Of a DNA stretch of 24,013 nucleotides, positions 4,170 through 20,974 are shown in pieces (positions within the stretch are counted from its first letter, which is position 1; each line of letters starts with the position of its first letter). This DNA comes from a virus. Where the stretch lies: IMG/VR virus record IMGVR_UViG_3300022859_000018, positions 1 through 24,013 of that record; one strand, written 5' to 3'. The translations under genes and the position numbers were made by a program. Under the pieces are notes generated by a model that was not told the DNA's origin, made no database searches, and saw nothing but the letters and a program-made list of their open reading frames with translations.

Positions 4170-4907
4170 ATGTCAGAAAACAAAGAAACAAAGGTCATAA
4201 ACAAAATAGTCCCCGGAAAAGGCGGGGACGTACTTACAATTTTGCAGGGTAAAGCACCCAGTCCAATTGAAAGTCAAGAAGTGAAACGTAGTGGCAGGAT
4301 AGATGCCGCCGGCAACTTCTTTGAAAAGAGAATTGATGTAGGTCAGTTTGAGAAAAAAGATTGTGTACTGTTTGCCAATTATGATGAAAGAACGGTTGTG
4401 CTTGAAATCTTTCCTCAATTTGCTCCCAAAATGGTTAAAATTAGCGGTAAACTATTCTTGGATAGCCAATTGGAACGATTTGGTATCAACAATCCGGACA
4501 CGAAGTATAATCGGGACGAATTGGCGCAACTGTTTAAGTTTAATCGGAATGCTTTTAGCATGATTAGTGAGGGTACTGGTTTTGTGAGAAATCTGAAAGA
4601 TTTTCATCTTAAGTTTGATCAGGCTTTTCAGGACACAGACAATCAGCGAGGATCCAAGAAAGTTGTTGTTGAAAGGGTAATTAATGAATGCAATCTTCCG
4701 GATTCCATCACATTGAACCTGCCGGTGTTTAAAGGATCTGATAAGTCGAGAATCGTTGTTGATGTGCTGTTTGATGTAAGTGCGGTCGGGGACGTTATTT
4801 TCTACTTGGAAAGCGCAGACCTGGCAGATTTGATCGAAGAGAAAACGATTGAACTGATTGATGAACAGGTAAAGCGGTTTGATGGTGTGGCCATCATATA
4901 CAGATAA
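4170..4907 (+). CDS. YfdQ/DUF2303-like phage protein
   Basis: 245 residues from the ATG at 4170 (an in-frame TTG at 4158 is a weaker start). The order of segments resembles DUF2303 (YfdQ) phage proteins: an FANYDERTVVLEIFPQF strand region, the central LDSQLERFGIN and LAQLFKFNRNAF helices, and a beta-rich C-terminal half with LPDSITLNLPVFKGSDKSR and VGDVIFYLESADLADLIEE. Family members are about 270 residues long and lie in phage early regions near single-strand-binding or recombination genes, which fits ssb three genes upstream. Their biochemical role is not established. The assignment rests on remembered architecture, so it is tentative. Confidence 0.5.
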   Translation: MSENKETKVINKIVPGKGGDVLTILQGKAPSPIESQEVKRSGRIDAAGNFFEKRIDVGQFEKKDCVLFANYDERTVVLEIFPQFAPKMVKISGKLFLDSQLERFGINNPDTKYNRDELAQLFKFNRNAFSMISEGTGFVRNLKDFHLKFDQAFQDTDNQRGSKKVVVERVINECNLPDSITLNLPVFKGSDKSRIVVDVLFDVSAVGDVIFYLESADLADLIEEKTIELIDEQVKRFDGVAIIYR

Positions 4908-4917
4908 TTGGTAAGAA

Positions 4918-5029
4918 ATTGGGTGTGGCAGGAGTACAGGCGTACGCAACACGATACGCTCAAGGCGAGTAAGTGTGCGACAGTAGCAGTTGCGGGCATA
5001 GCGTAAATCTATGATCTGCTGCACCCAAT
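4918..5029 (+). ncRNA. Structured spacer closed by a 14-bp helix (putative RNA or small inverted-repeat element)
   Basis: The ends of this spacer pair almost perfectly: ATTGGGTGTGGCAG at 4918-4931 with CTGCTGCACCCAAT at 5016-5029, 14 bp with two G-T wobbles. Inside, CGCAAC at 4945-4950 pairs with GTTGCG at 4989-4994, and a small CGC/GCG hairpin lies at 4957-4967. The interior is GC-richer than neighbouring leaders, and no credible ORF fills it. It is not a tRNA (no T-loop or acceptor pattern). It could be a phage small RNA, a cis-regulatory leader of the gene at 5057, or a MITE-like insertion. Confidence 0.45.
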
Positions 5030-5036
5030 AATTTTT

Positions 5037-5044
5037 TAACACTT
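5037..5044 (+). promoter_or_regulatory. TTAACACT leader element (variant copy)
   Basis: TTAACACT, one base off the TTAACACA consensus, ends 12 nt before the ATG at 5057 and follows the structured spacer directly. Confidence 0.3.
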
Positions 5045-5056
5045 AAAAACAGAAAA

Positions 5057-5404
5057 ATGGATATATCAGAAGCGAAGGATAATGAAGAAAGGAAATACAA
5101 GGCTGAGGCAATATCAGAATTGTCTTGTGAATCTAAAGGGGAAAATATTATTGAAAGCGATATAAAGCTTAACAAGCGCCTACGTAAAGAGATCGATTAC
5201 GTAATTCAGCAGGTAAAAAATGCAAATGGATCACGTGAACGATCTCTATGTATCACAAAACTACAGGAGGCGGTAATGTGGTTAGGAATGGATTTAAAGC
5301 GGATAGCGGAAGAGAATCCGGGAGTGCTTGAAAACCCATACCCGGACAGCAAAAACCCAGACAACACGAAGATTTCTCCGACAGCAGATGATTTAAAGCT
5401 TTAA
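5057..5404 (+). CDS. Hypothetical protein
   Basis: 115 residues, highly charged. The central part, NKRLRKEIDYVIQQVKNANG then SRERSLCITKLQEAVMWLGM, is a helical bundle-like region with the 'RE..LAITKLQEA.MWLG..L..I' pattern common in small phage proteins often labelled Acb2 or Tad1-like or simply hypothetical. The end is Pro/Asp/Asn-rich. The LQEAVMWLGMDLKRI signature is the best lead towards the Acb2-type cyclic-nucleotide sponges that counter CBASS defence; I suggest this only as a possibility. A rho-independent terminator follows 6 bp after the stop. Confidence 0.6.
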   Translation: MDISEAKDNEERKYKAEAISELSCESKGENIIESDIKLNKRLRKEIDYVIQQVKNANGSRERSLCITKLQEAVMWLGMDLKRIAEENPGVLENPYPDSKNPDNTKISPTADDLKL

Positions 5405-5410
5405 CCCCCC

Positions 5411-5450
5411 AAAGCCGGGCGCTGCTTCCTCTGGTGGTTCCCGGCTTTTT
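5411..5450 (+). terminator. Rho-independent terminator
   Basis: AAAGCCGGG at 5411-5419 pairs with CCCGGCTTT at 5440-5448, a perfect 9-bp stem with a 20-nt loop, running into TTTTT at 5446-5450. It ends the early operon after the gene at 5057-5404. Confidence 0.8.
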
Positions 5451-5462
5451 AATGATATAACC

Positions 5463-5843
5463 ATGAAAATCGATAAACTATACTATTACCGGGCAAAAGT
5501 CACGAGCGTCTATGACGGGGACACCTTCCGGGCAGACGTGGATCTGGGCATGTCAGTGGGTATGATGAACCAATCATTCCGAATCGCGGATATTAATACC
5601 CCGGAGGTTCGCGGACAGGAGCGACAGGACGGACTGATTGTCCGCGACCACGTCCGGATTATAATAAAAGACCAGGATATTCTAATCAACACCATGAAGA
5701 CCGGGAAGTTCGGCCGGTGGATAGCGTGGGTGTGGGTGCCTGACAATCAGTATTTCGACAACAACACCTCCTTGGGAGAATATTTATTAAAGAAAGGCTT
5801 TGCAGTCCCTTATGGGCAGGAGTGGAAGGGGATGCCGGTTTAA
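5463..5843 (+). CDS. Staphylococcal-nuclease-like (thermonuclease) protein
   Basis: 126 residues, one SNase domain. The calcium-site/active-site motif YDGDT lies at residues 17-21, FRIADINTPE at 39-48 supplies the equivalents of Arg35 and Glu43 (here Arg40 and Glu48), GKFGR at 81-85 supplies the second catalytic Arg, and SLGEYLLKKGFAVPY at 103-117 is the usual C-terminal helix. All catalytic positions are kept, so an active Ca2+-dependent phosphodiesterase is likely. No signal peptide is seen, which points to an intracellular role such as DNA processing. It follows a terminator closely, so it probably needs its own promoter or read-through. Codon use is more GC-rich than in its neighbours. 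Confidence 0.88.
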   Translation: MKIDKLYYYRAKVTSVYDGDTFRADVDLGMSVGMMNQSFRIADINTPEVRGQERQDGLIVRDHVRIIIKDQDILINTMKTGKFGRWIAWVWVPDNQYFDNNTSLGEYLLKKGFAVPYGQEWKGMPV

Positions 5844-5875
5844 TGACAATTTTTATATAACCAAAAACCTAAACA

Positions 5876-6423
5876 ATGAAATAATTATAAGTGAATTAAA
5901 TATTGAAAAATTATTAAAATCAACAATAAAACGTAGAGCACCAAAATCAGGGTATGATAACGACGTGAAAAATCAGTACAGAAAATCTGTATGGAGTCTT
6001 TTATCAAAAAAAGTGTTGAACCGGTTGATGACAGATAAAAATGCGAAGGTTTTGTTATTACCGTCAAAAGAGGGGATTGAAATAGATGTCGCGATAAGTT
6101 TTGGTATAAAGCCCGAGCAAATCATTGCTATAGATGAAAACCCACAATTATTAGCTCACGCTAAGTGGAAGCATAAAGTGCCGAAACAAAACAGGTTCGG
6201 GTGTAGGGTTTCGGCGATTGGACAGAAGATAAAGGATAGAGGTTGGTATCTCTTATTTGGATTTGAACCTACAGTGCTTGGTATATTAGCTTGGATGGTC
6301 TGGACTAATTATCATTATGCGGATATGCCAGCGGTAGTTCAAAACTATCTACTTTCAATCGGGATCTACCCATTCGACCAATCCGACTTTGGGGTGAGAA
6401 ACGTAAGGAGACTAAATGAATAA
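5876..6423 (+). pseudogene. Frameshifted Rossmann-fold methyltransferase-like gene fused to a duplicated C-terminal block
   Basis: The ATG at 5876 follows a typical AACCAAAAACC leader but reads ATG AAA TAA. One extra A in this run would give MKIIISELNIEKLL and continue in the long frame that ends at 6423. That frame encodes a SAM-type Rossmann N-terminus (AKVLLLPSKEGIEIDVAISF, then IKPEQIIAIDENPQLLAHAK). At about residue 125 it breaks off into unrelated sequence and then the 40-residue tail also found in the protein at 19479-19871. The frame is open upstream to an ATG at 5800 inside the nuclease gene, so translation by coupling cannot be excluded. I read it as a truncated, frameshifted gene joined to a copied block; a homopolymer sequencing error could explain the 5' shift. 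Confidence 0.6.
6295..6418 (+). repeat. Copy A of a near-identical inverted repeat (partner at 19478-19601)
   Basis: From ATGGTCTGGACTAATTATCA to AAGGAGACTAAATGAA the sequence matches the reverse complement of 19478-19601 base for base, except for two substitutions (GGTG versus ACG-type change near 6396) and a 2-bp AA insertion near 6408. It encodes the same 35-residue C-terminus (WTNYHYADMPAVVQNYLLSI and onward) and ends with the same AAGGAGACTAAATG ribosome-binding site. Confidence 0.9.
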
Positions 6424-9455: not shown

Positions 9456-9899
9456 ATGAATATGGCTTCGCTTAAAAGTAAACATAAAGAATTGATTATA
9501 AAGAGATTGGCTTGCTTTACACGTTCAGTCGAGGTTCAAACGGAGTTGAAAGAGTCCTTTGGTATAGACGTCTCGCTTGATCAGGTGGGTTATTATAACC
9601 CCGAGACGGCCAACGGGAGTAAGTTAGCTGAGAAGTGGAAGCAGTTGTATCGGCATACTCGCGAAGAATACATGACGGTAATTACCAAGCATCCCATAGC
9701 CAATAAAGGGTTTCGTCTTGGGGAGCTTCAAAAAAACTATGAAAGGGCAAGCAAAAACATTGTTCTGCAAAATCAGATTCTTGAGCAGGCTGCCAAAGAG
9801 GTTGGCAGAGCGTATGAGAAGGGAGAGGGTGACGGCGACAACAGGCCAACGGTAAACAATTTCATTCAACAGATTTACAATCGGATCGAGGGTAGATGA
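9456..9899 (+). CDS. DUF2280-type small terminase subunit
   Basis: 147 residues from the ATG at 9456; the frame extends back into the previous gene, but the AT-rich leader supports this start. The N-terminal half matches DUF2280: LIIKRLACFTRSVEVQTELK, then FGIDVSLDQVGYYNPE, which is a DNA-binding helix-turn-helix, then LAEKWKQLYRHTREEYM and PIANKGFRLGELQKNYE. A helical C-terminus may oligomerise. Such proteins stand directly before terL and recognise phage DNA to start packaging. The stop overlaps the terL start (ATGA), which confirms the pairing. Confidence 0.75.
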   Translation: MNMASLKSKHKELIIKRLACFTRSVEVQTELKESFGIDVSLDQVGYYNPETANGSKLAEKWKQLYRHTREEYMTVITKHPIANKGFRLGELQKNYERASKNIVLQNQILEQAAKEVGRAYEKGEGDGDNRPTVNNFIQQIYNRIEGR

Positions 9900-11905
9900 G
9901 CGCTGCAAAAAAGCTTTCCCACAAACAGATTATATCTGAGAGTAAAAAAAGAGATGCGAAACTCAATCCAGACTATGATCCATATACTGGTGAAGGAAGT
10001 CTGATTGAGCGATTTCCCTTCATGCAATCACCCGGTGTTACCATTTATCTGCCCTTAGAAATGAAATATGACAGCCTTTTTAAGCTGATCAAGGAAAAAG
10101 GGTGGCAAAAGGCGGCAAACGAAGCTTTTCCGGAGGAAAATCAGGGTGGCCAGGACAAAGTTGAAAGTCTTAGAGAGGCGTTTCATATCGTGCGGTGCCG
10201 TTATGACTTTGAATACTGGTGTGCATCGTGTGTGAAGATTGAGGACAATATGAAAGAGCTGGTTTCTTTCGTGCTGAATCCTCCTCAGCGTATCAGCCTT
10301 CGAGATCTTGAAGAAATGAGAACTGGTGGTGTGCCGGTCAGGAACATCGAAGGGAAGCATCGCCAGTACGGTAGTACAACCATGAAGAACGCCTATGCGT
10401 TTTGGGTTCAGAACGTGGTTCACAATGGGTACTCCGCTTATATCTGCTCGTTAGATCATGGTGGTGGTACCAAGATTGTTGGCCGGTATGAAACCATCGT
10501 CAATAATTACCCGGAAGTCATGGGTAAGATCCGCCTGAAACCATGGATGGGGCTACGCAATACATATGAGGTAGTCGGCACCAATTCACTGATTAACATA
10601 GGTAGCTCCGAACGGCCGAACGCTCCATCGGGAGATACTATTCAGATAGCATTGATATCAGAGGCCGGTAAGATGAAATCTACTGCTGCCAAGGGTGCTA
10701 ATAAGCTCATTACCAACATTATGAGTATGGTTCAGTTGAAACCGCATACCTTCGTGATGATCGAGAGTACTGCAGAAGAGTCCGGCGCTTGGTTCAGGTC
10801 GCAGATCTTTAAGGCAAAACGGGGTGAATCAGGGTTTAAGCTTACCTTTATTTCATGGGTTACTGATCCGAGATGTCAGATTCCCTTGCCAGAGAGTCAG
10901 TACAAGTCGTTCATCGATTCCATGACTACCTATGAATGGGAGGTGTTATGGGAGAATGGTGCTACACTGGATCAGATCAATTGGTATCGAAAGAAGTCTA
11001 AGGAGTACGATCAGCTTTGGGAGATGCAACAGGAGAACCCTACAACGATCGAGGAAATGTTTGCAGGCGCCGGTAAGAAAGTATTTAGCCCTGCTATGAT
11101 CAAAATAGCACGTTCTACCGTTCGTCAACCAAAATACATAGGGGATATTCATGGCAAGTCACACATGGGGCCAGATAGCTTGAAAGACTTGGAGTTTGTT
11201 GAGAACACCAAGGGGAACCTGCAGATATGGATGTTACCGTCTGAATACACAACAGAGAAGGATGTTGCACACAGAGGAGCTACGTTTGTTGATGTGGGTG
11301 GTGTTCACAAGGATAGTGATTACTCGGTGATTAAGGTTGCTGATCGGTGGCCAATGATAGAGGGTGGTTCTGCTGAATGTGCTGCTGTTTGGAGAGGACA
11401 CATTGATCCTGAACTGCTTGCATGGAAGAGCGCACAGATAGCGAAGTTTTTCTATGAATCGATACTGGCCGTTGAAGTCAATGCTCTATACAGCCGGGGC
11501 AATAATACGGACGGTGTTCACTACCTTACGATATTCAATCAGATAGCCAATCATTATCCGAACCTGTTTACCCGGGATGATCCGGATAAAGTTAGAGGCA
11601 GAAACCTTCGGTATGGGTATCACATGACCAATGCAAGCAAGGATATTCTTGTCTCTGGACTGAAATCAGCGTGGAGGCCAGAGAGTGGTGGTGGTTGGGT
11701 GGAACGTAGTCAGACGGCAGTGGATGAAGCTGCTTTCTTTGAAATCAAAGAGGATGGCACAATGGGAGCGATTGAAGGAGAGCATGATGATGAGCTGATC
11801 GCAACCGGTGGGGCGAAGTGGTTGGCAACGGATTATCTTCCTGCTCCATATTACATTGAGAAAACCAAGAAGAAGCAAATTAAATACAATGAAGCCATGA
11901 TTTAG
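9896..11905 (+). CDS. Terminase large subunit (packaging motor and nuclease), left module
   Basis: 669 residues. The ATPase part shows a Walker A-like KHRQYGSTT at 154-162, a Walker B region ending in ALISEAG at 252-258 and a coupling motif MIESTAEE at 288-295. The nuclease part shows TFVDVGG at 463-469 (first acidic residue Asp466), AVEVNALY with Glu527, and EGEHDDELIATGGA at 627-640 with the third acidic pair, the RNase H-like set that cuts concatemeric DNA. All main motifs are kept, so it looks functional. It translocates phage DNA into proheads with the small subunit encoded just before. It is not visibly related to the terminase at 16248-17762. No portal gene follows; the next genes are on the opposite strand. 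Confidence 0.88.
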   Translation: MSAAKKLSHKQIISESKKRDAKLNPDYDPYTGEGSLIERFPFMQSPGVTIYLPLEMKYDSLFKLIKEKGWQKAANEAFPEENQGGQDKVESLREAFHIVRCRYDFEYWCASCVKIEDNMKELVSFVLNPPQRISLRDLEEMRTGGVPVRNIEGKHRQYGSTTMKNAYAFWVQNVVHNGYSAYICSLDHGGGTKIVGRYETIVNNYPEVMGKIRLKPWMGLRNTYEVVGTNSLINIGSSERPNAPSGDTIQIALISEAGKMKSTAAKGANKLITNIMSMVQLKPHTFVMIESTAEESGAWFRSQIFKAKRGESGFKLTFISWVTDPRCQIPLPESQYKSFIDSMTTYEWEVLWENGATLDQINWYRKKSKEYDQLWEMQQENPTTIEEMFAGAGKKVFSPAMIKIARSTVRQPKYIGDIHGKSHMGPDSLKDLEFVENTKGNLQIWMLPSEYTTEKDVAHRGATFVDVGGVHKDSDYSVIKVADRWPMIEGGSAECAAVWRGHIDPELLAWKSAQIAKFFYESILAVEVNALYSRGNNTDGVHYLTIFNQIANHYPNLFTRDDPDKVRGRNLRYGYHMTNASKDILVSGLKSAWRPESGGGWVERSQTAVDEAAFFEIKEDGTMGAIEGEHDDELIATGGAKWLATDYLPAPYYIEKTKKKQIKYNEAMI

Positions 11906-11942: not shown

Positions 11943-12064
11943 GGTTAGTATATGAAAAGTAGGCGATTACGAAGCACTAAACTTTCGGTTAAGCACGAAC
12001 TTTGACACGAGCCAAAAGCCTTGATTTTACTACTATTTCGCCTATTTTTTATATACATTGTTAC
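11943..12064 (-). repeat. attC-like imperfect palindrome after the DUF262-HNH gene
   Basis: TATATGAAAAGTAGGCGA at 11949-11966 pairs with the reverse complement of 12038-12055 (16 of 18 positions), enclosing 71 nt. The outer ends are GGTTAG on the left and CATTGTTAC on the right, so on the minus strand it opens GTAACAATG, the same TAACAATG string found at 15283-15290. It occupies the gap between the two convergent blocks. It may act as a recombination site or as a two-way terminator; I see no other feature in 11906-12105. Confidence 0.45.
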
Positions 12065-14577: not shown

Positions 14578-14672
14578 GCACAACAATGGCTAAAGTTAAT
14601 AGCCTAAATAGGTCTTGTTATAGTTTTATGGTTAGTAATTAAGGCTACTAACCTTAGCCTAGACGTTAGGTG
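14578..14672 (-). repeat. attC-like palindrome after the MT-A70 methylase gene
   Basis: GGCTAAAGTTAATAGCCT at 14588-14605 is repeated inverted at 14642-14659 (16 of 18 pairs) around a 36-nt centre. On the minus strand the outer boxes are ACCTAAC, a perfect RYYYAAC core, and GTTGTGC, one base off GTTRRRY, about 90 nt apart. The two spacers between box and stem differ in length, as in integron attC sites. It begins at the stop codon of the MT-A70 methylase. Confidence 0.5.
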
Positions 14673-16247: not shown

Positions 16248-17762
16248 TCACAACCCACCCAACTTAAAGCTCCTTGTTTTGGTTTTACGGATCGGGTATT
16301 TCTGAACGCTGTAATACGACCAGGCTTCCGCGGCGTGCTCTACATTTCCCTTTTTATCAATTCCGTCACCTTTTCGTTTGGACTGCTCTAGGGAGTCAAT
16401 CAGGTTTGCGCATTTATTGGATATAATTACAAAGGACTCTCCGTCACGCTGCCAGTCTTTCAATCGTTTATTCGACGCGTCAAGACGCTCAGAAACAGGC
16501 GGGTTCGCCGTTGGTACATAGTCCTGAATCTCCCACTGTTCGGCAGCCAGCACCTCTTTGATGATCTGATAGTTGGATTTGATGCTCGATGTGTGCCCGT
16601 GTTTTCCCGAGGCATCCCCGTATAGGTGAATGATCTTGTTTTCGTGGTCCCGGTAGATCCGGACAAAGTCCTGTATGTGGTACTCCGTCCGGGTTCTCTC
16701 ATTATCAACCAGCTCCCCAAAAACGACATCCATTGGCGGCATGTCGTGCAGAAGGATCCAGCTCATGGGCTCGATGTTGAAATCGCAGCACATCACAATA
16801 GGCATGGCCGGGTTATACAGATCCTCGTCGGTAACGTGGGCTTGGTAGTCAAAGTTCTCCCATGCCTTATTGCTGATTGACGCCGTGTAATCGATATCCA
16901 CCTCGGCGGCCAGATCCTGCTTAGACCTTCGTTTCTTCTCCCTCTCGTACCAAGCCTGCGTTTTAAGCGGGTGAGCGCTCCAATACATCCGGTGAACGTC
17001 GATCTGCCCGGCGTTCTGGCTTCTCAAAGCATAAAAGTGATTGTTTCGCCCGTTTGCCGAGCTGATAGCCAGTTTACAATCTGTCACATCGGAGGCGGAC
17101 TGCCAAGCGCTCTCATCAGTGTTGCTCCACTTACCAAACTCGTCAAAGATCACCGCCTTTTTCCGGCCACCCGTGGCAAAATAAGGGTTATTGCTCTCCC
17201 CGGTGATGCTCGATCCGGTCTGCGGGTTGGTGATGTTCATGAACGACATGTGCTTTTGAACATCAAAGCCATCGGGAAGCAGCCACTTTGGTTGTCGCTT
17301 GATCTGATATCTAATTTTCGGAAACAGGGCGTCCATGTCCCCGATCTTATCCACGAAGTCCTCTTTACGCGATCCCACCTTAAAATCATTACCAGCCCCC
17401 CCGAATTGCCAGTACCACTGAATAACCGCCAATACAAGCCAGCTGGCTCCCATGTCCCGGGACTTCTCTGTCAGGCCGTCTTTGCCACCATCGATGTGAT
17501 CTACCAGCCACATCACATACTCGTCCTGGTATTCCCACGTCAAAAACAGAATGTGCGCGTCGTCGTAGCCAAGCTTCGATTGGTTTTCCGGGCGGGGATC
17601 GAACGTCCATCCAAAGCAGTTTAGCCAGAAAAGGATATCCTGCTTACACCACGCTTTTACAGCTGATCGGAACTCCGGGTCTTTGTCTGCCTTTGAAAGG
17701 ATCTCCGCCCGGTATCGATAGTTATCCTCGCGGGTTTTGGGGTATGGGGGGTTATTGCTCAA
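16248..17762 (-). CDS. Terminase large subunit, right module
   Basis: 504 residues. The ATPase has SRDMGASW at 101-108 (the phage-type Walker A), AVIFDEFGKW at 203-212 (Walker B) and AISSANGRN at 232-240 (coupling motif). The nuclease has MCCDFNIEP (Asp327), LYGDASGKHG (Asp383) and EHAAEAWSYY near 475-484. The set is complete. The frame opens at a TTG at 17762, right after an in-frame stop, and no upstream ATG is possible; a six-codon ATG frame overlaps this start. The small subunit precedes it by 81 bp. No portal gene follows: the adenine methylase island begins after the stop. It is more GC-rich than the island. Confidence 0.9.
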   Translation of the reverse strand: MSNNPPYPKTREDNYRYRAEILSKADKDPEFRSAVKAWCKQDILFWLNCFGWTFDPRPENQSKLGYDDAHILFLTWEYQDEYVMWLVDHIDGGKDGLTEKSRDMGASWLVLAVIQWYWQFGGAGNDFKVGSRKEDFVDKIGDMDALFPKIRYQIKRQPKWLLPDGFDVQKHMSFMNITNPQTGSSITGESNNPYFATGGRKKAVIFDEFGKWSNTDESAWQSASDVTDCKLAISSANGRNNHFYALRSQNAGQIDVHRMYWSAHPLKTQAWYEREKKRRSKQDLAAEVDIDYTASISNKAWENFDYQAHVTDEDLYNPAMPIVMCCDFNIEPMSWILLHDMPPMDVVFGELVDNERTRTEYHIQDFVRIYRDHENKIIHLYGDASGKHGHTSSIKSNYQIIKEVLAAEQWEIQDYVPTANPPVSERLDASNKRLKDWQRDGESFVIISNKCANLIDSLEQSKRKGDGIDKKGNVEHAAEAWSYYSVQKYPIRKTKTRSFKLGGL

Positions 17763-18867: not shown

Positions 18868-18945
18868 TTATCGGTTTTTGCGGAGCTTCATCATAGCAAT
18901 CTTAACCCGCTGAATATTCACCAGCTGGCTAACACTTGAATTAGA
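18868..18945 (-). pseudogene. C-terminal fragment of a paralogue of the gene at 20573-20974
   Basis: On the minus strand this reads SNSSVSQLVNIQRVKIAMMK then LRKNR and a stop, matching the end of the 20573-20974 protein (INSSVSQLVNVQKVKIEMMK). A 24-bp stretch (18920-18943 and 20625-20648) is identical. There is no start and no upstream half; the neighbouring small gene runs into it in another frame. It is a scar of recombination or deletion. Confidence 0.65.
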
Positions 18946-19098: not shown

Positions 19099-19482
19099 TT
19101 AAAGTTCTGTTCTTTTAATAAGCCATACACCTAATTTAACACGCCAATCATTCCAGTTTTTATACATTCTTGCCATTGTAAACAATTGTGCTGTCAGTAA
19201 TGCTTTTTGTCCATTAATGCCAATAGTCAATTCTGTTTTATGGTATTTATTAGGCGTTTCTTCTGTACACAATAAATCAAAGTCTATCATAATGCCTGGA
19301 ACTTCTGGCCCAATGAATGACTGAAGGTCACCCTTTTTGTTTTTCTCATAAAATTCTATCAGGCGATGAATACACATAGCATCACCCGTGCTGCTATATT
19401 CATATTTATTTCTCAGATGTTCTACCATCTGGTCAAGTGACAGAGTATTCCAATCTAACCACCCTTCTGGTACTTGTTTCAT
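19099..19482 (-). CDS. Hypothetical accessory protein with a GPxVPGI motif
   Basis: 127 residues, starting inside the stop of the previous gene (AAATGAAAC) with GGAGAC 5 nt upstream. Segments: an N-terminal helical part (GWLDWNTLSLDQMVEHLRNK, then DAMCIHRLIEFYEKNKKGDL), the FIGPEVPGIMIDF string near residue 60, and a C-terminal part LTAQLFTMARMYKNWNDWRV followed by LGVWLIKRTEL. I recognise no domain. It belongs to a run of small genes with uniform strong ribosome-binding sites, different in style from the rest of the window. Confidence 0.6.
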   Translation of the reverse strand: MKQVPEGWLDWNTLSLDQMVEHLRNKYEYSSTGDAMCIHRLIEFYEKNKKGDLQSFIGPEVPGIMIDFDLLCTEETPNKYHKTELTIGINGQKALLTAQLFTMARMYKNWNDWRVKLGVWLIKRTEL

Positions 19483-19601
19483 TTAGTCTCCACGTTTCTC
19501 GTCCCAAAGTCGGATTGGTCGAATGGGTAGATCCCGATTGAAAGTAGATAGTTTTGAACTACCGCTGGCATATCCGCATAATGATAATTAGTCCAGACCA
19601 T
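19478..19601 (-). repeat. Copy B of a near-identical inverted repeat (partner at 6295-6418)
   Basis: On the minus strand it encodes the last 35 residues of the 130-residue protein at 19479-19871 and the ribosome-binding site of the next gene. It lacks the AA insertion seen in copy A, so the reading frames of the two copies end differently. This is probably the original context, since the block continues a full-length gene here. Confidence 0.9.
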
Positions 19602-19871
19602 TAATCTATACCTGATTTCTCCGAGCGGTGTTATATCTTGTTCCTGAAATGTTGGACACTTTCTCAACTCTTCATCTGTCATGTCCTCAATCTTACGTGC
19701 CACGAGAGTACAATAGCGCACATTAATCAGAGCACCATTAAGGATAAGGAAACACCCATGAAATTCAGTTGAATAGCCTTCTATTTCAATGTTCTCAGGA
19801 AAGTTGAATTTATTCTCTTTTATTGAGAATTTCCCATTTGAAAATAAGTTTGGCACATCTTTCCAGTTCAT
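19479..19871 (-). CDS. Hypothetical protein whose C-terminus is duplicated at 6295
   Basis: 130 residues, with AAAGGAGACAGAATG as the start region. The N-terminal part is beta-rich (GKFSIKENKFNFPENIEIEG, then FHGCFLILNGALINVRYCTL), followed by DMTDEELRKCPTFQEQDITP and the tail WTNYHYADMPAVVQNYLLSI. No known family is visible. The tail is shared almost exactly with the mosaic gene at 5876-6423, so the left copy was probably derived from a relative of this gene. Confidence 0.6.
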   Translation of the reverse strand: MNWKDVPNLFSNGKFSIKENKFNFPENIEIEGYSTEFHGCFLILNGALINVRYCTLVARKIEDMTDEELRKCPTFQEQDITPLGEIRYRLMVWTNYHYADMPAVVQNYLLSIGIYPFDQSDFGTRNVETK

Positions 19872-19909: not shown

Positions 19910-20194
19910 TCAAAGCATCTTACCGCACTTCATACAGTATTGAACCTCTAAGTATCCGCTACCATGTCTTTCAGATGTTGGATGGGCGCATTTCATATAA
20001 TCCAAAGCCTTTTCCCCTTCGAGGCGTTTCTCATCCCAAAACTGGACATAGGCCATACCTGTTTCACCATGTCCGCAACAGGCGTTCATTACATCCGAGA
20101 GAGTTCCAATGCAGCCGTCATGACCCTCAACAGTTCTTCTCAAACCACAATGCCCACAGGTTTCTTTTCCGTATCCGTCTAAATAATTACTCAT
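19910..20194 (-). CDS. Cys/His-rich zinc-binding protein
   Basis: 94 residues. CGHCGLRRTVEGHDGC near the N-terminus and YCMKCGKML at the C-terminus frame a body with ACCGHGETG and CAHPTSERHGSGYLEVQYC. Such paired Cys-x2-Cys and Cys/His clusters point to one or two zinc-ribbon sites. The start has AAAGGATACAAAATG, the same ribosome-binding-site style as the neighbours. It may bind nucleic acid or a host protein. The family is not identified. Confidence 0.6.
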   Translation of the reverse strand: MSNYLDGYGKETCGHCGLRRTVEGHDGCIGTLSDVMNACCGHGETGMAYVQFWDEKRLEGEKALDYMKCAHPTSERHGSGYLEVQYCMKCGKML

Positions 20195-20218
20195 TTTGTA
20201 TCCTTTTTGGGCTTAAAA

Positions 20219-20303
20219 AGCAACAGTGGCGTATTCAAAGGCGAAGGATTCGTCTAACATCCATTTTAAATGGCAAACCCTAAAGCCCGCCACTGTTGCT
20301 CAT
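20219..20303 (-). ncRNA. Inverted-repeat hairpin element
   Basis: AGCAACAGTGGCG at 20219-20231 is perfectly inverted as CGCCACTGTTGCT at 20288-20300, with a 56-nt loop that itself contains the near-palindrome CCATTTTAAATGG at 20261-20273. On the minus strand the stem ends in CTTTTTAA, terminator-like, and the element separates two small genes. It may be a structured leader, an attenuator or a very small mobile repeat. Confidence 0.45.
20280..20303 (-). CDS. Possible 7-residue leader peptide
   Basis: A start region TAAGGAGACAAAATG, identical in style to the ribosome-binding sites of the neighbouring genes, is followed by only seven codons (MSNSGGL) and TAG. Its first codons form one arm of the 13-bp hairpin at 20219-20300. 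It may be a leader peptide controlling the downstream gene, or the stub of a gene lost by deletion. Confidence 0.3.
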   Translation of the reverse strand: MSNSGGL

Positions 20304-20319
20304 TTTGTCTCCTTAAGGG

Positions 20320-20572: not shown

Positions 20573-20974
20573 TTACTTCTTTCTGTGAAGTTTCATCATC
20601 TCGATCTTTACTTTTTGCACGTTTACCAGCTGGCTAACACTTGAATTAATCGCCTTGGCCTGGCCGACGTAACCCGGGTTATCTTTTACTTCTTTCATTG
20701 TGGCCATCAATACATCCTCGACGCTGTTTAGATTTTTAAAGTCCTGACTTTTGTGAGCCAGACCGTTGCCACTTGTAACCTCAGGTAGTTGAGTGCTCTC
20801 GAATTTTTCGATCTCCTCAGCTACATCGCTTTTGTTGAAAATAATGGCTGTACTATCGGTTAGTATATGTACACGGCCATCAGCGATATGCCACTCCTTC
20901 AGCTGGTAGGCTTTTGATTTGTAGATCACCCGACTTCCCATCAGGTCGTCCAGTTGATTATTTATTTTGCTCAT
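20573..20974 (-). CDS. Hypothetical phage protein (intact paralogue of the 18868 remnant)
   Basis: 133 residues, overlapping the HNH gene by 17 bp. The N-terminal half looks like a small beta barrel (SRVIYKSKAYQLKEWHIADG, then VHILTDSTAIIFNKSDVAEE), the middle is a linker, and the C-terminal helix region (NSVEDVLMATMKEVKDNPGY, then INSSVSQLVNVQKVKIEMMK) is the part copied at 18868-18945. The last part resembles small phage proteins that precede terminases, with 'A.S.S...L...K..IE...L'. The function is unknown. Confidence 0.6.
   Translation of the reverse strand: MSKINNQLDDLMGSRVIYKSKAYQLKEWHIADGRVHILTDSTAIIFNKSDVAEEIEKFESTQLPEVTSGNGLAHKSQDFKNLNSVEDVLMATMKEVKDNPGYVGQAKAINSSVSQLVNVQKVKIEMMKLHRKK

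What the first reader, a model, noticed from the sequence alone, without database searches (positions are those of the whole stretch)
4918..5029. Unexplained 112-nt structured spacer
The ends form a 14-bp helix and an inner CGCAAC/GTTGCG helix supports a multi-branch fold. It is not a tRNA, and it lies in an early operon just before a gene whose leader follows directly. It could be a phage small RNA, a ligand-sensing leader or a tiny inverted-repeat element.
Basis: partly seen in the sequence, partly recalled or inferred. Interest (0 to 1): 0.6.

Follow-up and report, generated by a model that had tools for sequence, protein, structure and literature searches.

The report
Long-loop hairpin ending a phage gene
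The 112-base stretch is a real, unusually long-looped RNA hairpin (a stem formed by its ends, no detectable order inside) sitting where related phages keep a shorter hairpin just after the same gene, so it is most likely a transcript-end (terminator-like) signal rather than a new folded RNA.

Summary
The arms at 4918-4932/5015-5029 pair (15 bp) better than nearly all shuffles of the spacer. The inner "multi-branch" part has no support: with arms fixed and only the 84-nt interior shuffled, folding is unchanged (z +0.15), and the proposed CGCAAC/GTTGCG helix has ensemble probability 0.002. No tRNA, Rfam family, blastn relative or model match was found, so covariation cannot be tested.

Position explains it best. 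The upstream gene is a DUF2303-like phage gene. Of 67 distinct relatives, about half have a significant hairpin right after its stop codon (usually 7-14 nt later), against 17% of other spacers; 93% keep a spacer of at least 40 nt there, against 27% elsewhere. The window's stem starts 10 nt after the stop and is followed by AATTTTTT. I read it as the family's 3'-end, terminator-like hairpin with an exceptionally long loop (82 nt; others mostly 3-16, hairpins up to 37). The same genome has three more long-loop stems. In Bacteroides-type relatives the same spot instead carries very diverse tRNA-like RNAs, the more remarkable by-product of this work.

The parts
4170..4907 (+). DUF2303-like phage gene (phrog_11501) whose stop codon (4905-4907) precedes the element
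   Evidence: PHROGs hit 2.8e-33; tblastn to phage proteins annotated DUF2303; no Pfam hit at 0.01
4918..4932 (+). 5' arm of the closing stem (ATTGGGTGTGGCAGG), starting 10 nt after the stop codon
4933..5014 (+).
5015..5029 (+). 3' arm of the closing stem (TCTGCTGCACCCAAT)
5032..5037 (+). run of six T, 2 nt after the stem (tail AATTTTTTAAC)
   Evidence: sequence
5057..5404 (+). next gene: Acb2/Tad1-hairpin-domain protein (anti-CBASS/anti-Thoeris sponge type)
   Evidence: PF24729 27.8 bits, cutoff 27; relatives in Bacteroides, Tenacibaculum and crAss-like phages
5411..5448 (+). hairpin after the Acb2-type gene (9 bp, 20-nt loop, T-rich end), terminator-like

Best explanation
The element is the 3'-end hairpin of the DUF2303 transcription unit: a terminator-like (or transcript-end protecting) stem of 15 bp followed by a T-run, of the kind that sits a few nucleotides after DUF2303 in about half or more of its relatives, but with its loop lengthened to 82 nt in this phage. 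Proposed working: RNA polymerase transcribes the early genes through DUF2303; the two arms pair in the nascent RNA; at the T-run part of the polymerases stop, giving the mRNA a stable 3' end and lowering transcription into the Acb2-type gene. Shown: the stem, its non-random strength, its position, and the position of hairpins in relatives. Inferred: that it terminates transcription, how efficiently, and that the loop has no function of its own.
For: Stem strength against shuffles. Stem followed by AATTTTTT. Significant hairpin in 38 of 67 and, rerun, 35 of 67 distinct post-DUF2303 spacers, against 26 of 150 control spacers of 40 nt or more in the same loci. Stem starts cluster 7-14 nt after the stop; the window's is at 10. 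93% of DUF2303 genes are followed by a gap of at least 40 nt, against 27% of other co-directional pairs; median gap 76 against 9. Loops of 24-37 nt occur in relatives (L087, L055, L058, L153). Four further stems stronger than most shuffles sit in spacers of this window, three with loops of 36, 56 and 71 nt (0 of 300 shuffles) and one, after the next gene, with 20 nt (5 of 300). The interior folds like shuffles.
Against: An 82-nt loop is far beyond textbook intrinsic terminators; a nascent stem that must wait for 82 nt would close late. The T-run starts 2 nt after the stem, and many relatives' hairpins have only weak T-tracts. No transcript data. The window's protein is a long branch with no close relative, so the link rests on position, not on aligned RNA sequence.
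Confidence: 0.52

Rival explanations
1. A discrete phage small RNA occupying an 'RNA slot' behind DUF2303. In Bacteroides-type relatives this very spot carries tRNA-like RNAs of 64-190 nt; the window's element would be a non-tRNA occupant, cut from the mRNA, with the long stem closing it.
For: 26 distinct tRNA-like RNAs found in the slot; T-arm motifs are about 20 times denser there than elsewhere in the same loci; L009's tRNA-like starts 8 nt after the stop, as the window's element starts 10 nt after it; elevated G+C of the element.
Against: No T-arm or tRNA match in the window; local alignment to slot sequences is no better than for shuffled elements (37 against a mean maximum of 34.7); interior shows no folding signal.
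Confidence: 0.2
2. An RNase III or other processing/stability stem, or an antitermination/attenuation site, that sets the ratio of DUF2303 to Acb2-type protein without acting as a terminator.
For: Continuous 15-bp stem between two genes of one run; hairpins recur at this place in relatives.
Against: Followed by a T-run, which is expected of a terminator; no factor-binding motif found.
Confidence: 0.13
3. A ligand-sensing leader of the Acb2/Tad1-type gene, for instance sensing the cyclic nucleotides that such proteins bind.
For: It lies directly upstream of an Acb2/Tad1-domain gene.
Against: No Rfam riboswitch even at E 10; none of the 32 inspected Acb2-type relatives in IMG/VR, nor three in phage genomes, has a recognisable counterpart upstream; interior not structured beyond chance.
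Confidence: 0.05
4. A miniature inverted-repeat insertion, or a piece of foreign sequence inserted into an ordinary hairpin loop.
For: Higher G+C than its surroundings; loop far longer than in relatives.
Against: No second copy in the window; arm pair and core 18-mer each match only one other place in IMG/VR; no evident target-site duplication.
Confidence: 0.1

Closest known systems
Intrinsic (Rho-independent) transcription terminators
   Same: Stable stem at a gene's 3' end followed by a T-run; hairpins at the same place in relatives.
   Different: Loop of 82 nt instead of a few nt; T-run begins 2 nt after the stem; termination untested.
Short hairpins after DUF2303 genes in Bacteroidota phages and prophages (this work)
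   Same: Distance from the stop codon, stem length, U-rich tail in many.
   Different: Loop length; no sequence similarity.
tRNA-like RNAs in the same slot of Bacteroides phages (e.g. BS-TP2, L003:3250-3357)
   Same: Same genomic slot; closed by a helix at its ends.
   Different: Those keep a 7-bp acceptor-type stem and a T-arm with TTCGA; the window element has neither.
Integron attC sites (considered from memory)
   Same: Imperfect inverted repeat of about 112 nt whose ends read ATTGGGT/ACCCAAT, near the R-box consensus.
   Different: The boxes run in the opposite order and lack the GTT core, so the defining cleavage box is absent.

Membership tests
Intrinsic terminator | Stable G+C-containing stem at the 3' end of a gene or transcription unit | tested here: met
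   15-bp stem, 1 in 1000 shuffles as good, 10 nt after a stop codon
Intrinsic terminator | T-run directly downstream | tested here: met
   AATTTTTTAAC after the stem; offset of 2 nt
Intrinsic terminator | Short loop (a few nt) | tested here: not met
   82-nt loop; the terminator scan, limited to loops of 3-8, does not report it. I therefore call it terminator-like, not a terminator
Intrinsic terminator | RNA 3' ends at the T-run | not testable with these tools
   needs transcript data
tRNA / tRNA-like slot RNA | T-arm with TTCRA-type loop stacked on a 7-bp acceptor stem | tested here: not met
   none found in the window; ARAGORN and Rfam negative
Known structured RNA family (Rfam 15) | Covariance-model match at gathering score | tested here: not met
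Conserved structured ncRNA | Homologues with compensatory changes | tested here: inconclusive
   no homologues found
Miniature inverted-repeat element | Several copies with the same ends | tested here: not met
Post-DUF2303 hairpin class (defined here) | Significant stem starting within about 25 nt of the DUF2303 stop | tested here: met
   starts 10 nt after the stop; 0 of 40 shuffles as good

The most novel reading that the evidence does not exclude
The spacer behind DUF2303 is an RNA cassette slot of Bacteroidota phages that swaps in fast-changing non-coding RNAs (tRNA-like in Bacteroides phages, others elsewhere), and the window's element is a non-tRNA occupant acting as a small RNA, possibly in counter-defence next to an Acb2/Tad1-type gene.
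Probability: 0.14. Interest if true: 0.65.

Novelty: new variant of a known kind. Interest (0 to 1): 0.3.

Why it matters
For the element itself, little: it shows that hairpins ending phage genes may carry loops of 80 nt, and warns that a whole-element folding z-score can come from one closing stem. The slot matters more. A gene of unknown function (DUF2303, the YfdQ family) is followed in Bacteroidota phages by a conserved spacer holding either a hairpin or very diverse tRNA-like RNAs that ARAGORN mostly misses; that is a concrete place to look for unrecognised phage RNAs.

Tried and rejected
Rfam at gathering and permissive thresholds: only an irrelevant sRNA match (RF02059, E 0.77) outside the element. 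blastn against phages; arm-pair pattern in IMG/VR (the one hit, L088, is shorter, in another context and without similarity); core 18-mer in IMG/VR (one hit at a stretch end, not followed); single-sequence covariance model over 116 sources, 1.45 Mb: no homologue; the weak minus-strand self-match is the palindrome of its own stem. Riboswitch for the Acb2-type gene: no counterpart upstream of its relatives. tRNA: no T-arm. A suggestive alignment to L081's tRNA-like RNA is within the shuffled range. attC: boxes in the wrong order. Bacteroidetes promoter consensus: none near the element. Short ORF 4908-5006 (32 aa, TTG start): no evidence that it is a gene, not pursued. Terminase relatives do not carry the DUF2303 region within the stretches fetched, so they could not supply the missing homologues. 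A DUF2303 search with the window protein alone found nothing.

Full report
Setting. The window is a single 24,013-base IMG/VR virus record. The element lies in the 149-nt spacer 4908-5056 between a DUF2303-like gene and an Acb2/Tad1-domain gene, within a co-directional run that also holds a primosomal-type protein, a single-stranded-DNA-binding-type protein and a nuclease.

Is the structure real? The arms 4918-4932 and 5015-5029 pair over 15 bp. The helix is stronger than in all but 1 of 1000 dinucleotide shuffles of the spacer. But the signal is entirely the outer stem: the 84-nt interior alone has z -0.31, and when the arms are kept and the interior is shuffled the real sequence is not more stable than the shuffled ones (z +0.15). 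The CGCAAC/GTTGCG helix is nearly absent from the predicted ensemble (0.002) and such a match is common by chance. Many near-equal interior folds exist.

Relatives. No homologue of the RNA was found by blastn, by patterns, or by a model built from the single sequence, so covariation is untestable. I therefore compared the place rather than the sequence, using 80 IMG/VR loci, five phage records and 33 loci of bacterial genome assemblies that encode DUF2303 relatives.

The place. After removing near-duplicate spacers, 67 distinct slots remain. About half (38 in one run, 35 in another) hold a hairpin that at most 1 of 40 shuffles matches, against 26 of 150 other spacers of at least 40 nt in the same loci. 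The stem usually starts 7-14 nt after the stop; in the window, 10 nt. A gap of at least 40 nt follows 93% of DUF2303 genes but only 27% of other co-directional genes. Loops are mostly 3-16 nt, with 24-37 nt in L087, L055, L058 and L153; the one longer value, 67 nt in L009, is the acceptor stem of a tRNA-like RNA. The gene caller used for the control is crude (longest ORFs), and the pass mark of 1 in 40 is lenient, so the contrast, not the absolute rate, is the evidence.

Reading. The outer stem with its AATTTTTT tail is most simply this phage's version of the post-DUF2303 hairpin, a terminator-like 3' end, with an exceptional 82-nt loop. Long loops are a habit of this genome: stems of 19, 18 and 14 bp with loops of 71, 36 and 56 nt occupy three other spacers and none is matched by 300 shuffles. 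Termination itself is inferred, and by the textbook short-loop criterion the element fails, hence 'terminator-like'.

The rival slot-RNA view. In Bacteroides-type phages the same slot carries tRNA-like RNAs: a 7-bp acceptor-type stem and a T-arm with TTCGA, around a middle that differs wholly between phages, 64-190 nt long. Because candidates were chosen for pairing, their covariation is partly built in; the conserved TTCGA loop and the roughly 20-fold enrichment of T-arms in the slot are better evidence. ARAGORN misses most, and Rfam's tRNA model catches only some. The window element lacks every one of these marks. A paper search found nothing on such RNAs, within an open-access library only. 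DUF2303's E. coli relative YfdQ belongs to a gene cluster whose overexpression inhibits replication initiation (PMC4776307), which does not explain the spacer.

Verdict. A real long-loop hairpin, probably a transcript end; the interior is unexplained but shows no sign of structure. Interest is low to moderate, raised by what the comparison revealed about the slot.

Noticed in passing
L003:3250-3357, L004:2676-2783, and slots of L009, L012, L013, L015, L020, L029, L033, L036, L038, L040, L043, L058, L083, L138, L157, L159, L164, L166 (downstream of DUF2303): Very diverse tRNA-like RNAs (26 distinct) in one conserved slot: acceptor-type stem and TTCGA T-arm kept, the D/anticodon region replaced by unrelated sequence; closely related DUF2303 genes are followed by different RNAs. 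T-arm motifs are about 20 times denser there than elsewhere.
   Followed up: partly
L015:1281-1357, L020:708-790, L036:560-642, L038:5749-5823: ARAGORN predicts tRNAs with four-base anticodons (enlarged anticodon loops) in several Bacteroides-type phage loci.
   Followed up: no
window 11948-12056 (+), 14588-14659 (-), 20218-20301 (-): Three more long stems (19, 18 and 14 bp) with loops of 71, 36 and 56 nt in spacers, none matched by 300 shuffles.
   Followed up: partly
window 20299-20316 (-) and 20190-20207 (-): Repeated ribosome-binding/start motif (AAGGAGACAAAATGAGC): upstream of the gene at 19910-20194 a 7-codon ORF (MSNSGGL) lies in the 5' arm of the long stem, like a leader peptide with an attenuator.
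   Followed up: no
window 5057-5404: Acb2/Tad1-hairpin-domain protein just above the Pfam cut-off, with an added N-terminal part; relatives of about 50-70% identity in many phage contigs.
   Followed up: partly
window 9896-11905 (+) and 16248-17762 (-): Two different large-terminase-like ORFs in one 24-kb record, on opposite strands.
   Followed up: no
window 18875-18943 and 20580-20648; ORFs 5800-6423 and 19479-19871: A 69-nt repeat at 77% identity, and two ORFs sharing the peptide VWTNYHYADMPAVVQNYLLSIGIYPFDQSDFG.
   Followed up: no
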